A stretch of 56,656 nt of DNA from positions 1-56,656 of the IMG/VR virus record IMGVR_UViG_3300036859_000863; one strand, written 5' to 3'. Positions within the stretch are counted from its first letter, which is position 1; every line of letters starts with the position of its first letter. A program made the translations under genes and the position numbers. The notes under the pieces were generated by a model. It was not told the DNA's origin and ran no database searches. It saw only the letters and a list, made by a program, of their open reading frames with translations. Below are positions 10,157 through 37,981 of the stretch, in pieces. This stretch comes from a virus.

Positions 10157-10191
10157 CCGGTCAGCGCTGCCAGCCGGGATTGCCCTGGCAG
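10150..10191. terminator. Palindrome and stem-loop at convergent gene ends
   Basis: Bases 10150-10167 form a perfect palindrome, GCGCTGACC/GGTCAGCGC, holding the plus-strand stop (10154-10156) and the minus-strand stop (10161-10163) symmetrically. Next to it CTGCCAG (10167-10173) pairs with CTGGCAG (10185-10191). There is no T tract, which is common for high-GC hosts. A bidirectional terminator is the simplest reading. Confidence 0.45.
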
Positions 10192-10514
10192 TTCTCACTG
10201 AGCGTTACGAGCTGCAGATGAGCGGGATTCCAGCATGCTCGGTGCGGACAGGATGGGCCGCTGCAACTCGCGCCAGCGAGCCGTGCCCTGCGGTGGCAGA
10301 TGTGATCGACGGTCATATCTACCGGGATAGCGCCGACGAAGATCTCGAAGCTGACGCGATGCAGCCGCTTTACGTACTGGCGGCCGTTCTCGTTCCAGCC
10401 GAGCTGCCCGTATCCCCACTTGTCGAGACTGAGGAACGCCGGCCAGCACTCGTCATCGGGACGGCCGCGGGATTCGAACATCAGCCGGAGCACCACTCGG
10501 TTTGGTATGGTCAT
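10161..10514 (-). CDS. HNH endonuclease (homing type)
   Basis: A 117-residue product from ATG 10514, chosen for its ribosome site (TAGGAGTTGGA just upstream). The domain layout is a CWPAFLSLDKWGYGQL strand pair, HRVSFEIFVGAIP, then the HNH core MTVDHICHRR...CSGPSCPHRACWNPAHLQLVT, with Zn-type cysteines and the catalytic His of VDH. It sits downstream of the RecT-like gene behind a strong hairpin. It resembles the nested HNH at 36684-37181 in architecture (HRVxxExxVGxIP...DHxC...CNPAHL), so both may be mobile endonucleases. Confidence 0.85.
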   Translation of the reverse strand: MTIPNRVVLRLMFESRGRPDDECWPAFLSLDKWGYGQLGWNENGRQYVKRLHRVSFEIFVGAIPVDMTVDHICHRRARLAGASCSGPSCPHRACWNPAHLQLVTLSENCQGNPGWQR

Positions 10515-10533
10515 TCCAACTCCTATGGGGTAG
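10515..10533 (-). promoter_or_regulatory. CTACCCC leader element of HNH gene with SD hairpin
   Basis: On the minus strand the leader reads CTACCCC... as part of CTCCTA-CCCCA-TAGGAG just before the ATG. The two 6-base arms pair, which could bury the Shine-Dalgarno. The CTACCCC heptamer recurs upstream of four other operon-leading genes. Confidence 0.45.
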
Positions 10534-10547
10534 GAGTAGATGCCGTC

Positions 10548-10586
10548 GGCCGGTCGGCCCGTAGTCCCAGTGCGAACCGACCGGCC
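10548..10586 (-). terminator. Strong hairpin after RecT-like gene
   Basis: GGCCGGTCGG (10548-10557) and CCGACCGGCC (10577-10586) are perfect 10-base inverted arms around a 19-base loop. On the minus strand it lies directly after the stop of the RecT-like gene and before the HNH leader. It has no T run but would terminate or attenuate transcription into the HNH gene. Confidence 0.5.
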
Positions 10587-10593
10587 CGCGGTT

Positions 10594-11784
10594 CTATCGG
10601 CCGGACGCCTCGTTCTCCGCGGCCTGCGCATGCAACAGTTCCGCTGTCAGTACGAGACGCCGTAAATCGATCGGCCAGCCTTCGTGGTCGATACCCAGTT
10701 CCGTCAAGGTCCCGTTCACCTTCTGGTGGTGGAGCTGGCGGACGTACTCGATGACCGGGGTCGAGTCGGCCTCCGGGAGCTGGGCGAGCAGCTTCTGGAC
10801 CCGCATGGCCGCGGCGTGCAACGCGTGCCGCTCAGCCTCGCTGTCGGCGGGCTGCTCCTCGTTTGGCTCCTCGTCCGCCTGTGTGGCCTCAGGAGCCGTC
10901 GCGGGCGTTTCCCCGGCCGGTTCTGCCTCCGACGCGTCTGCGACGCTCTCGGGGCTGTCTAGCGTCTGCTCGCCGGACTCCAGGAATGCCTCCACAGTCT
11001 CGACCTGCTCGTCGGTCATGTCCTTGGGGACGCGGGTGATGCCGTGCTCGTCGCAGAACTCGCGCAGGATCGCCCGCCGGTCGGCGTCGAGGCCGCGGAT
11101 CCGGTCGGCGAGGGCGATACGACGCTGCCGGCCTTCATCGGGTGGGGGCAGTTCCTGGACGTCAATGGCGTTGCCGCGTTCGTCGACGTCGGCGCCCATC
11201 TCCTCCGGCACGTAGGCGGCACCGAGGAGCACGTCGGCGTACAGCATCCGGCAGAGCTGGCCGAGCGCCCGCGCCCACAGCATCGACCGGGTGTACGCCT
11301 CCCACGGCATGACCTTGCCCTCCTTCGACCGGGCGTACACGGTGCCGTCGTCGCGGCGCTTGCACAGCCCGGCTCGCACGGCGTCGTCGAGCGTGAACTC
11401 GAACTCCATCATGTCGCCCGTGTCGGCCCGCTTGCCGCGGGCGACGGCACGCTCGTGGGTGACGTCCCCGGTGAGACTGTGCCCGGCCCGTCTGACGAGC
11501 GCCTCCATGCCTTCGGGGGAGACGGTCGGCTTGCCGTCGATGACCGCGATGAACCGCATCGCGGTGGTGACCCCCCAGCCCAACTCGCGGCCCATCAGCG
11601 CGGCGGTGACGACGTTCTCCGGCCGACCCCGGTACGCGCCCGGCACCAAGCCGGACGCCGCCATCTGGTCGGCCTGGGCCAGCATCATCTTCCACTCCGA
11701 CTCGCGGGGTGGGGCGACGACGGGCAGACCCTCTGAGGGCGGCTCGGTGGCGGTCGTCTCGATCGGCGGCTCGGCGGCGCTCAC
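10594..11784 (-). CDS. RecT-like single-strand DNA annealing protein
   Basis: A 396-residue product. Residues ~35-200 show the RecT-type core seen in actinophages: QADQMAASGLVPGAYRGRPENVV, GRELGWGVTTAMRFIAVIDGKPTVS, and MLWARALGQLCRMLYADVLLGAAYVPEEMG. It would bind single strands and promote annealing in phage recombination or replication. An acidic Ala/Pro/Glu linker (~270-330) leads to a C-terminal helical domain not typical of short RecT proteins. Its ATG overlaps the stop of the Gam-like gene, so the pair is one minus-strand recombination operon. Confidence 0.75.
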   Translation of the reverse strand: MSAAEPPIETTATEPPSEGLPVVAPPRESEWKMMLAQADQMAASGLVPGAYRGRPENVVTAALMGRELGWGVTTAMRFIAVIDGKPTVSPEGMEALVRRAGHSLTGDVTHERAVARGKRADTGDMMEFEFTLDDAVRAGLCKRRDDGTVYARSKEGKVMPWEAYTRSMLWARALGQLCRMLYADVLLGAAYVPEEMGADVDERGNAIDVQELPPPDEGRQRRIALADRIRGLDADRRAILREFCDEHGITRVPKDMTDEQVETVEAFLESGEQTLDSPESVADASEAEPAGETPATAPEATQADEEPNEEQPADSEAERHALHAAAMRVQKLLAQLPEADSTPVIEYVRQLHHQKVNGTLTELGIDHEGWPIDLRRLVLTAELLHAQAAENEASGR

Positions 11785-34990: not shown

Positions 34991-35220
34991 CGCTCCGACA
35001 TCGCCGGTTCGATCTGGTGCGAGACGAGGACGTGACCGGCGTGTCTGGTACCGGCGTGGTCGCCCAGGGCGTGTGGTTCCCGGACGGCGATGTCGTGGTG
35101 TTGCGCTGGACGTCGGCGTGGCCTACCAGCGTGGTGTTCCACGAGCGGGGCCTCGATTCGATCGAGGCGGTGCACGGCCACAACGGCAAGACACGAGTCG
35201 AGTGGCTCGATGCCGACTAA
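34987..35220 (+). CDS. Small hypothetical protein between portal and MuF
   Basis: A 77-residue product from GTG 34987 (GTGA). A compact beta domain: RRFDLVRDEDVTGVSGTGVVAQGVWFPDGDVVVLRWTSAWPTSVVFHERGLDSIEAVHGHNGKT. This layout (GTGVVAxGVxFxDGxVxLRW...S...) is common in actinophages near structural genes. Function unknown. Confidence 0.6.
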   Translation: MTLRHRRFDLVRDEDVTGVSGTGVVAQGVWFPDGDVVVLRWTSAWPTSVVFHERGLDSIEAVHGHNGKTRVEWLDAD

Positions 35221-37981
35221 CGACCATCGCAAGCTGCTGGCCGAGCTGGAGGACCTGGCCGCCGCCGCGGTCGACGTCGCGCTGCGGAACGTGGCCCGCC
35301 GGTTCGCCGTCGCCCTCCGCCGTATGGGTGCGGTGTCCGCGGACGACGCCGCGGTGGTGCGCTCGATGTGGGTGGACGAGATCGACGGGCCGCTCGTCGA
35401 CGCTGTAGAGGCCGCCCAGGAGCTCGGTGTGACGGCCGGGGAGGCGCAACTCGGCATACCCGCCGGGCGGCCGCCGCTGGCGCTCAGGGAGGCTCTGGAG
35501 GGCGCCAGGAACCGGCTGGCGCGCGTCGGCGACGAAGTCTGGCAGCACGCCCGCGCCCAGTTGGTGGAGGGGGTGGAGCTGGGCGAGTCGATACCGAAGC
35601 TGGCGAAGCGGATATCGCGGCTCCCGGATCTCGCCGGCCCGAGGGCCACGGTCGTCGCCCGCACCGAGGTCGTGTCCGCCAGCAACAAGGCGACGCTGGC
35701 GGTAGCCCGGGACCGGGGGGTGGCGACGGTCAAGACCTGGTTGGCCACCGACGACGACCGCACCCGCGAGTCGCACGCGGCGGCCGAGGCCGACCCGGCG
35801 AACCAGCGGATCCCGATGGACCACCCGTTCACGGTGGGCGGCTGGCCGGCCGACTACCCGGGTGATCCCGGTTTGCCCCCCGATGAGGCGATCAACTGCC
35901 GCTGCACCGTTGTGGTCGAGCGAGATCCGGCGGCCGAGCAGGATCAGGAAGTACCGTTGGCGGCGGCCGCGACCGAGGAGGAGACGATCGTGCCTTGGAG
36001 CAAAGTCAAGGGCGGCGGCGACTGCGGAGACGACCAGTGGGCGGTCCTCAAGGACTCCGACGGCAGCACGGCGGGGTGTCACGACACCGAGGAGGAGGCG
36101 GACGCCCAGCTCGCCGCGCTGTACGCGAGCGAGCCGGACGCCGCCGTCGAGCTGCTCCCGCTCGTAGAGGGGCCGACGTGGGAGGGCGTGATCGCGATCG
36201 AGGGGAAACCGACGGAGGAGGCCCCGGCCCGCGAGTTCGCGCCCGGCAGCCTGACGTGGGAGCGGCTGCCGATCGTGCTGCAGTGGGAGAAGGAGGGCAC
36301 CCACGGCGGCGACCACAGCGTGACCGTCCCGGTCGGTTCGGTGGACGAGATCGAGCGTCGCGACGGCGGCGAGATCTGGGGGCGGGGCCGGCTGTCGACG
36401 TCGTCGCCGGACGCGTTGACGGTGACGGAGATGATGCGCGAGGGGTTCGTACGTTGGGTGTCGATCGTCCCGGACGGCATATCGGATGCCGACGTCGAGC
36501 TGGTCATGCCCGACGAACCGCCCGCCGTTGAGGACGAGGAGATAGAGGACCTGCTGTTCGGCCCGACCCCGGAGACGGTGATCTTCCACGCCGGAAGGAT
36601 CAGGGCGGTGACGCTCGTCGACATCGCCGCGTTTATCGACGCGGTTGTAACACTGGAGGAACCCTTAGAAGTAAGCTCTGCTAATGAAACCGCGAGCGAG
36701 AACACCAGCGTTACAGCGGATACTTCGTCGAATCGATGTCTCGAATGCGGAAGCGTGCTGGCTGTGGCCGGGGGCAACGGCGGCCGGGTACGGGGTGATC
36801 GACGTCGAGGGGACGAATCGGGGAGTGCATCGAGTGATGTACGAAGCGCTGGTCGGTCCGATTCCAGTGGGGTTGACGATCGATCATCTCTGTCGGCAAC
36901 CGCTGTGCTGCAATCCAGCGCATCTGGAACCGGTGACGATGTGGGAGAACTTGCGGCGAGCGCCGAACACCAGCGTTTCCAAGTCGTTGCGCATGACGCA
37001 TTGCACCAACGGTCATCTATACGACGAGACGAACACGGTCATGGGGAAACGAGTCAACGGCGAGACCTACAGGATGTGTCGAACCTGCCGTCAGGAAAGT
37101 CGGTTACGTCGCTACGCAGCGGACCCGGAGCGATTCAGGACCTATCAGCGGGAATACCGGCGGATGAGGCGCAACTCATAGCGGCCGGTACGCACACGCT
37201 GGTGTTGCATGACCGGCCGCCGGCGTGGTGGTTCAACGAACCGACCGATGAGACCCCGCACGGCGCGCTGACGGTCACCGACGAGGGCCGCCTGTACGGA
37301 TATCTGGCGCCGTCGAACGTAGGGCACATCTCGCCGCTGTTCCGGGGACGCACCGTCCCGTTGGGCACCGACTACTCGCGGTTCCACCGGGGCGAGGTGG
37401 TGTGCGAGGGCGGCGAGCGGGTCGTCGCAGGGAACGTGACGATGGGCTGCAACCACGCCCCGCGGGTGGCGTCGGTGCCGGAGATCGAGCAGTTCGAGAA
37501 CACATGCGCCGTATTTGGTCGGGTGCGGGTCGGCGAGAACCGGCACGGCGCCTGGGTCGCCGGCTACGTGCTGCCGGGCGTGACCGCGGACATGGTGGAG
37601 CGGGCGATGGGTTGCCAGCTGTCGGGCTACTGGAGGCCGAAGGAGAGCGGCGGCGGGGTCGAGCTGTTCTCGGCGCTGCTGGTGCCGGTGCCGGGGTTCC
37701 CGATGGGGAGGTCGCGGCCGTCGGTGCGAGTCCGGAACGGGGCGATGGTGTCGTCGGCGGTGCCGGTCCGGTTCGAGGACGGACACCTGCACGGCCATGA
37801 CTTCGCTATGGCGATGGCCGCGGCAGCAGGAGGGGGCTGCGGGTGCGGCGGTCACGTCGAAGGCGAACCGGCGATTACCGCGGCGGCGCTACGTTCGATC
37901 GTCTCGGTCGCCGAGCAGAACCGGCAGCGCCGACGACAGGCGGCCGCCGCGCTCGCCGCCCGGATCGAGGCGGGCGTCTGA
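35210..37981 (+). CDS. MuF-like head protein fused to capsid maturation protease, with internal HNH insertion
   Basis: A 923-residue frame from ATG 35210. Residues ~1-245 are Mu gpF-like (VVARTEVVSASNKATLAVARDRGV, WLATDDDRTRESHAAAEADP, GDPGLPPDEAINCRCTVVVE). Residues ~260-480 are protease-like (VKGGGDCGDDQWAVLKDSDG, GCHDTEEEADAQLAALYASE, WEGVIAIEG, EFAPGSLTWERLPIVLQW). After ~485 a Ser/Arg-rich stretch of ~170 residues corresponds to DNA that codes an HNH enzyme in another frame (36684-37181). The conserved part resumes at PPAWWFNEPTDETPHGALTVTDEGRLYGYLA. Normal homologues would lack the ~500-base insert. Confidence 0.7.
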   Translation: MPTNDHRKLLAELEDLAAAAVDVALRNVARRFAVALRRMGAVSADDAAVVRSMWVDEIDGPLVDAVEAAQELGVTAGEAQLGIPAGRPPLALREALEGARNRLARVGDEVWQHARAQLVEGVELGESIPKLAKRISRLPDLAGPRATVVARTEVVSASNKATLAVARDRGVATVKTWLATDDDRTRESHAAAEADPANQRIPMDHPFTVGGWPADYPGDPGLPPDEAINCRCTVVVERDPAAEQDQEVPLAAAATEEETIVPWSKVKGGGDCGDDQWAVLKDSDGSTAGCHDTEEEADAQLAALYASEPDAAVELLPLVEGPTWEGVIAIEGKPTEEAPAREFAPGSLTWERLPIVLQWEKEGTHGGDHSVTVPVGSVDEIERRDGGEIWGRGRLSTSSPDALTVTEMMREGFVRWVSIVPDGISDADVELVMPDEPPAVEDEEIEDLLFGPTPETVIFHAGRIRAVTLVDIAAFIDAVVTLEEPLEVSSANETASENTSVTADTSSNRCLECGSVLAVAGGNGGRVRGDRRRGDESGSASSDVRSAGRSDSSGVDDRSSLSATAVLQSSASGTGDDVGELAASAEHQRFQVVAHDALHQRSSIRRDEHGHGETSQRRDLQDVSNLPSGKSVTSLRSGPGAIQDLSAGIPADEAQLIAAGTHTLVLHDRPPAWWFNEPTDETPHGALTVTDEGRLYGYLAPSNVGHISPLFRGRTVPLGTDYSRFHRGEVVCEGGERVVAGNVTMGCNHAPRVASVPEIEQFENTCAVFGRVRVGENRHGAWVAGYVLPGVTADMVERAMGCQLSGYWRPKESGGGVELFSALLVPVPGFPMGRSRPSVRVRNGAMVSSAVPVRFEDGHLHGHDFAMAMAAAAGGGCGCGGHVEGEPAITAAALRSIVSVAEQNRQRRRQAAAALAARIEAGV
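36684..37181 (+). CDS. HNH endonuclease nested inside capsid protease gene
   Basis: A 165-residue product from ATG 36684. Core motifs are ACWLWPGATAAGYGVIDVEG, VHRVMYEALVGPIPVGLTIDHLCRQPLCCNPAHLEPVTMWEN, then THCTNGHLYDETNT with C...H and a second CX2C (MCRTCRQ). The C-terminus is basic, for DNA binding. GC is visibly lower than in the host gene. Flanks are too short for a group I intron core, so this looks like an intron-less homing endonuclease that inserted itself; the host frame stays open right through it. Confidence 0.82.
   Translation: MKPRARTPALQRILRRIDVSNAEACWLWPGATAAGYGVIDVEGTNRGVHRVMYEALVGPIPVGLTIDHLCRQPLCCNPAHLEPVTMWENLRRAPNTSVSKSLRMTHCTNGHLYDETNTVMGKRVNGETYRMCRTCRQESRLRRYAADPERFRTYQREYRRMRRNS

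What the first reader, a model, noticed from the sequence alone, without database searches (positions are those of the whole stretch)
36655..37181. HNH gene nested in the capsid protease gene while the host frame stays open
A lower-GC HNH endonuclease gene sits in the middle of the MuF/capsid-protease gene, but in another frame. The host frame has no stop through the ~500-base insert, giving a ~170-residue Ser/Arg-rich stretch. Flanks look too short for a group I intron, and the frame mismatch excludes an intein. So an essential protein may carry an out-of-frame translation of an endonuclease as an internal linker, or be split functionally at that point.
Basis: partly seen in the sequence, partly recalled or inferred. 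Interest (0 to 1): 0.7.

Follow-up and report, generated by a model that had tools for sequence, protein, structure and literature searches.

The report
Endonuclease gene hidden inside capsid protease
A selfish DNA-cutting (HNH) gene sits out of frame inside the linker of a phage head-maturation protein whose own reading frame stays open straight through it, so one stretch of DNA can encode an enzyme and a floppy linker; a similar arrangement was reported in 2025 for the phage ShiLan methylase, and this is a new case in a virion-assembly gene.

Summary
An intact HNH_3 endonuclease ORF (36684-37181) lies in another frame inside a 923-aa MuF/capsid-maturation-protease ORF (35210-37981) that has no stop through the insert. 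The host frame there encodes about 174 residues with no homology and AlphaFold pLDDT near 33; the same DNA in the HNH frame gives a confident fold (pLDDT 92). The element is bare: about 20 nt lies before the HNH start, and homology to the closest relative resumes at the last base of the HNH stop. No intron was detected. The insertion site is a junction between protease and C-terminal domains, where relatives carry either short linkers or other folded domains; the closest relative has a 157-residue domain there. Given the HNH gene's own codons, the host frame would be open about 1% of the time, which suggests but does not prove selection. A second independent case (L040) was found, with an uninterrupted homologue. 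The arrangement matches the out-of-frame HNH insertion published for phage ShiLan (PMC11855218), so this is a new member of a known kind. What is new: a head-protease host gene, a domain plug-in site and a second unreported example. Translation of either product is inferred, not shown.

The parts
35210..37981 (+). Host gene: MuF / capsid maturation protease fusion, 923 aa, open through the insert (first possible ATG 35090)
35549..35911 (+). MuF domain (PF04233) of the host gene
36164..36667 (+). Protease domain; fold matches T4 gp21 capsid protease (VIA Z 10.2, 116 residues aligned, rmsd 2.5) and herpesvirus assemblins
36664..37181 (+). Insert: host-frame linker of about 174 residues, no homologue, pLDDT about 26-41, GC about 0.60; right edge defined by DNA homology to L012 resuming at 37181
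36684..37181 (+). HNH endonuclease ORF, 165 aa, +1 frame relative to the host, stop codon at the right edge of the insert; all columns invariant in its family intact; pLDDT 92
36822..36956 (+). HNH_3 catalytic core (PF13392)
37182..37981 (+). C-terminal domain of the host protein, 76-78% identical to L012; phrog_859 positions 554-779

Best explanation
This is a ShiLan-type out-of-frame HNH insertion element: a mobile HNH endonuclease gene with almost no flanking sequence, inserted in a virion-assembly gene. It does not splice. It is tolerated because it sits in the interdomain linker of the MuF/capsid-maturation protease, and because the host reading frame happens to be, and is probably kept, free of stops. 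Ribosomes on the host frame make one long protein with a disordered linker of about 174 residues. Separate internal initiation at the ATG 36684 makes the endonuclease, which would cut alleles that lack the insert and so spread by homing. Shown: two frames, intact HNH, intact host domains, bare edges, no detectable intron, variable junction in relatives, disordered linker prediction. Inferred: translation of both products, homing activity, purifying selection on openness, and whether the insert replaced an earlier domain such as that of L012.
For: Open host frame with intact domains on both sides, 73% and 76-78% identical to L012. HNH family and all its invariant residues intact. Edges: homology to L012 stops just upstream of the HNH start and resumes at the HNH stop codon. 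No Rfam intron. The junction holds short linkers or unrelated domains in about 100 relatives, with both domains in one ORF. Linker pLDDT about 33, HNH frame 92. Host-phase frame open about 1% by synonymous shuffle. Codon-position GC shows the host coding signal on both sides but not inside the insert. An independent case, L040: HNH inside a small phage gene whose uninterrupted homologue is in L342/L343 (E 5e-19), host frame open, P(open) 0.7%. Published precedent: ShiLan gp65 (PMC11855218), checked here in JN020143: HNH_3 in another frame, P(open) 1.6%.
Against: No transcript, protein or homing data. Only one genome with this insert, and no sibling with and without it at the same DNA-level site. 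No Shine-Dalgarno at normal spacing before 36684. Openness could be chance (22% with phage codon usage), and over 174 HNH genes with GC below 0.66 the number open in this phase (3) is not clearly above expectation (1.84). Cases are found because they are open, so their probabilities are not an unbiased test.
Confidence: 0.77

Rival explanations
1. Openness of the host frame is luck only: the HNH gene landed in a dispensable linker, the host protein reads through, and there is no selection on the overprinted frame beyond the initial survival filter.
For: With the phage's own codon usage 22% of recoded HNH genes would be open in this phase; over 174 HNH genes 3 open observed against 1.84 expected.
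Against: Using the gene's actual codons the probability is 0.5-1.2%; 0 of 33 risky codon pairs use T; L040 and ShiLan show the same at 0.7% and 1.6%.
Confidence: 0.35
2. A degenerate or unknown self-splicing intron removes the insert from the mRNA.
For: HNH genes are commonly intron-borne; intron splicing in actinophage capsid and tail genes is known (PMC3706429, listed; discussed).
Against: No Rfam hit even at E<=10; only about 20 nt outside the ORF, so no room for a core; an intron need not leave the host frame open.
Confidence: 0.06
3. The protein is split: N-terminal MuF-protease and C-terminal domain act as separate products, the latter started internally after the HNH stop.
For: In Gordonia phage Halo3 the C-terminal domain is found without the protease domain in the same ORF (L014).
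Against: No stop before 37981 in the host frame, so the upstream product always runs on into the C-terminal domain; nearly all relatives keep both domains in one ORF.
Confidence: 0.1
4. Ribosomal frameshifting or bypassing at the junction makes a protease-HNH fusion or skips the insert, as in T4 gene 60.
For: HNH is in the +1 frame relative to the host.
Against: The HNH frame has a stop (TAA) four codons before its ATG, so a +1 shift upstream would end there; the gene 60 gap is about 50 nt (own knowledge), this one over 500; no need, since the host frame is open.
Confidence: 0.03
5. Assembly chimera: an HNH gene was joined into the protease gene by short-read misassembly.
For: Single metagenomic contig.
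Against: Frame kept on both sides, exact junction at the stop codon, a similar independent case in another metagenome (L040), and ShiLan is an isolated, sequenced phage.
Confidence: 0.03

Closest known systems
[quoted passage not shown] first described 2023, PMC9957025)
   Same: HNH gene of the same broad family (PF13392) in another frame inside a phage gene; host frame without stops; start codon about 18-20 nt into the insert and stop codon at its very end; no intron or intein; disordered in-frame translation; no clear RBS.
   Different: Host gene is a capsid-maturation protease (virion assembly) rather than a dispensable methylase; the ShiLan HNH is not detected with our HNH profile, so it is a different subfamily; the other reading phase; insertion at a variable interdomain junction rather than between highly conserved residues; patchy distribution and homing not testable here.
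Pacc40 gp60 hidden HNH-like insertion (same paper)
   Same: Out-of-frame ORF in a phage gene with an open host frame.
   Different: Helicase-methylase host gene; its HNH assignment is less certain according to the authors.
phrog_826 free-standing HNH endonucleases of actinophages
   Same: Sequence family of the enzyme (E=1e-44).
   Different: Those compared here are free-standing genes between other genes; 3-11 stops in the corresponding frame in six phage examples.
Group I intron-borne HNH endonucleases (I-HmuI type)
   Same: Similar fold, weakly supported (VIA Z 6.9 to I-HmuI, tied with unrelated SMAD rows).
   Different: No intron core found, no room for one.

Membership tests
ShiLan-type out-of-frame HNH insertion element | HNH endonuclease ORF wholly inside another phage gene, same strand, different frame | tested here: met
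ShiLan-type out-of-frame HNH insertion element | No stop codon in the host frame through the insert | tested here: met
ShiLan-type out-of-frame HNH insertion element | Insert edges hug the ORF (start near the 5' edge, stop at the 3' edge) | tested here: met
   left edge about 36664, start 36684; homology to L012 resumes at 37181
ShiLan-type out-of-frame HNH insertion element | No detectable intron or intein | tested here: met
   Rfam: none at gathering score, only a chance snoRNA at E<=10; no Pfam or PHROG hit in the host-frame insert
ShiLan-type out-of-frame HNH insertion element | Patchy distribution / horizontal movement between alleles | tested here: inconclusive
   absent from all about 100 relatives of the host gene found, but no second copy of this insert known
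ShiLan-type out-of-frame HNH insertion element | Both products translated; endonuclease active | not testable with these tools
   needs bench work
HNH_3 endonuclease (PF13392) | Profile match above cut-off with conserved residues intact | tested here: met
   48.8 bits against 24.8; all columns invariant among its homologues present
Capsid maturation protease (T4 gp21 / herpes assemblin fold) | Protease fold | tested here: met
   VIA Z 10.2 to T4 gp21, 116 residues aligned, rmsd 2.5; activity not tested
Group I intron | Conserved catalytic core | tested here: not met
Intein | Splicing domains in the host frame | tested here: not met
   no Pfam or PHROG match for the host-frame insert

The most novel reading that the evidence does not exclude
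Bare HNH genes that overprint their host gene are a recurrent third solution, beside introns and inteins, to living inside important phage genes: virions carry the out-of-frame peptide as a linker, the host frame is under selection to stay open within the endonuclease gene, and at this junction the endonuclease may also drive the exchange of plug-in domains seen among relatives.
Probability: 0.4. Interest if true: 0.7.

Novelty: new member of a known kind. Interest (0 to 1): 0.5.

Why it matters
The kind was described only in 2025 from phage methylases that related phages can do without. A case in a head-maturation protease removes the easy escape that the host gene is dispensable and asks whether an out-of-frame endonuclease translation can be a working part of a virion protein. 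It makes dual coding directly testable by virion mass spectrometry and RT-PCR. Together with L040 it suggests that the arrangement is wider than methylases, and that annotation pipelines may miss it because each frame hides the other.

Tried and rejected
Group I or other intron: none in Rfam. Intein: insert has no match in the host frame. Split gene: no stop. Trace of the L012 plug-in domain under the HNH gene: none at DNA level, so replacement against insertion into a short linker cannot be decided. Host-frame 'AGIPADEAQ' at the right edge resembles L007 'ADIPAEDK' but is too short to use. Other HNH genes open in the same phase (L049, L052, L064, L291, L365) were inspected or judged from their flanks: GC-rich chance or a neighbouring gene's frame, not nested in an interrupted gene. 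A search for interrupted host genes with closed frames found none, but the comparison set was small. Metagenome contigs could not be searched. Sequence search of solved structures with the HNH profile gave nothing; Foldseek gave only weak homing-endonuclease matches.

Full report
What is there. The window is a 56,656-base IMG/VR virus record. An HNH endonuclease ORF at 36684-37181 lies on the same strand as, and in another frame from, a MuF/capsid-maturation-protease ORF that is open from 35090 to 37981, most likely starting at 35210. The insert has GC about 0.60 against about 0.70-0.74 around it. The HNH protein matches HNH_3 (E=5e-13) and phrog_826 (E=1e-44), and all columns invariant in its alignments are intact. 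The host protein has a MuF domain, a protease domain with the T4 gp21/herpes assemblin fold (Z 10.2, 116 residues, rmsd 2.5) and a conserved C-terminal domain.

Where the insert lies. The profile phrog_859 matches the left part up to position 531 and the right part from 554, so uninterrupted homologues have almost nothing between. Among about 100 relatives the same junction carries mostly linkers of 20-45 residues. In others it carries one of several domains: a domain with the motif FIHHE..VGAAN in L012, L107, L164, L178-L182 and L186; a YKLPFAD-type domain in L007 and Streptomyces prophages; helix-turn-helix-like and other segments elsewhere (the grouping is by eye, no Pfam model matched those tested). 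In the closest relative, L012 (73% identity in the protease region, 76-78% in the C-terminal domain), a 157-residue domain sits there and no HNH_3 exists in the record. DNA homology between the window and L012 resumes at 37181, the last base of the HNH stop codon. The left edge is about 36664, some 20 nt before the HNH start. So the element is essentially a bare ORF.

Not an intron or intein. Rfam gives no match over the window at gathering score, and only a chance snoRNA at E<=10 over 36450-37350. The host-frame translation of the insert has no Pfam or PHROG match. A model built from 23 homologues gives pLDDT about 26-41 for the linker between well-predicted domains, while the HNH frame gives mean pLDDT 92.

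Is openness more than chance? Keeping the HNH protein and its own codons, the host-phase frame is open in 1.0-1.2% of shuffles, and 0.5% when codon order is permuted; with the phage's GC-rich codon usage it would be 22%. No codon ending in T stands before a codon starting AA, AG or GA (0 of 33, against 22 of 131 elsewhere), which is the same signal seen another way. In a survey of 198 distinct HNH genes, 174 of them below GC 0.66, three are open in this phase against 1.84 expected: the window, L040 and L365. Two of the three are nested in an interrupted gene; L365 is not, judged from its upstream flank. So openness is unusual for the individual gene and goes with nesting. But the cases were found because they are open, so this is suggestive rather than proof of selection.

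A second case. In L040 (another metagenomic virus) an HNH gene of the same family at 1366-1890 lies in the same phase inside an open frame 1212-2051. The two host parts, '...GELYEQD' and 'LWYDPDDTEPCSQCGGE...', join in an uninterrupted homologue in L342/L343 ('GELHEEDPLWYDPDDTEPCHQCGGE', E=5e-19). The gap is flanked by an 8-nt repeat TGGTACGA spaced 549 nt apart, in phase with the host. P(open) is 0.7%.

Comparison with the known. Arsenault et al. 2025 (PMC11855218) describe the ShiLan domain: an HNH gene out of frame in a mycobacteriophage methylase, host frame without stops, start 18 bp into the insert, stop in its last four bases, no intron or intein, disordered in-frame structure, patchy distribution. 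I read the same arrangement in JN020143: HNH ORF inside gp65, HNH_3 E=9e-8, P(open) 1.6%. The window shares the sequence-level features that could be tested. It differs in host gene (virion assembly), reading phase, HNH subfamily and the nature of the insertion site. I therefore file it as a new member of that kind. MuF proteins are known carriers of fused effector domains (PMC5512222), which fits the plug-in nature of the junction.

Mechanism. Most likely, host-frame translation gives one long protein with an unfolded linker at a place that tolerates inserts, and internal initiation gives the endonuclease, which spreads by cutting alleles without it. The sequence shows the dual frames, the edges and the intact domains; translation, cutting and selection are inferred. 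No Shine-Dalgarno stands at normal distance before 36684, as was also reported for ShiLan. That the host gene is essential is inferred from the role of capsid maturation proteases in other phages and was not tested.

Limits. One genome, no transcript or protein data, no close sibling with or without the insert at the DNA level; whether it replaced a domain like that of L012 or entered a short linker is open.

Noticed in passing
L040:1212-2051 (IMGVR_UViG_3300027857_000025): Second nested out-of-frame HNH gene, in a small zinc-finger-like phage gene, flanked by 8-nt direct repeats TGGTACGA; uninterrupted homologue in L342/L343.
   Followed up: yes
window 36700-36712, 36965-36977, 37196-37206: 13-mer GAACACCAGCGTT occurs twice inside the insert and its 11-nt core once inverted in the right flank; with one mismatch allowed 0.7 matches are expected in the whole window and five found. 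Meaning unknown.
   Followed up: partly
window 10164-10646 (-): A second HNH-like ORF of the window (161 aa open frame), weakly similar to the nested one.
   Followed up: no
L007, L012, L107, L164, L172, L178, L186, L189-L211: The junction between protease and C-terminal domains is a plug-in site for several different domains, including what looks like an ADP-ribosyltransferase-like segment in L206 (not tested).
   Followed up: partly
L325 (G076:C1:33260-33385 -) and L275 (G028:C1:20967-21068 +): HNH_3 matches lying in frame within very long open frames (1855 and 933 aa); possibly inteins or fusions.
   Followed up: no
L345:1501-1881 (Clavibacter phage CN1A): HNH gene 51% identical to that of L040 lies unannotated in the GenBank record.
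   Followed up: no
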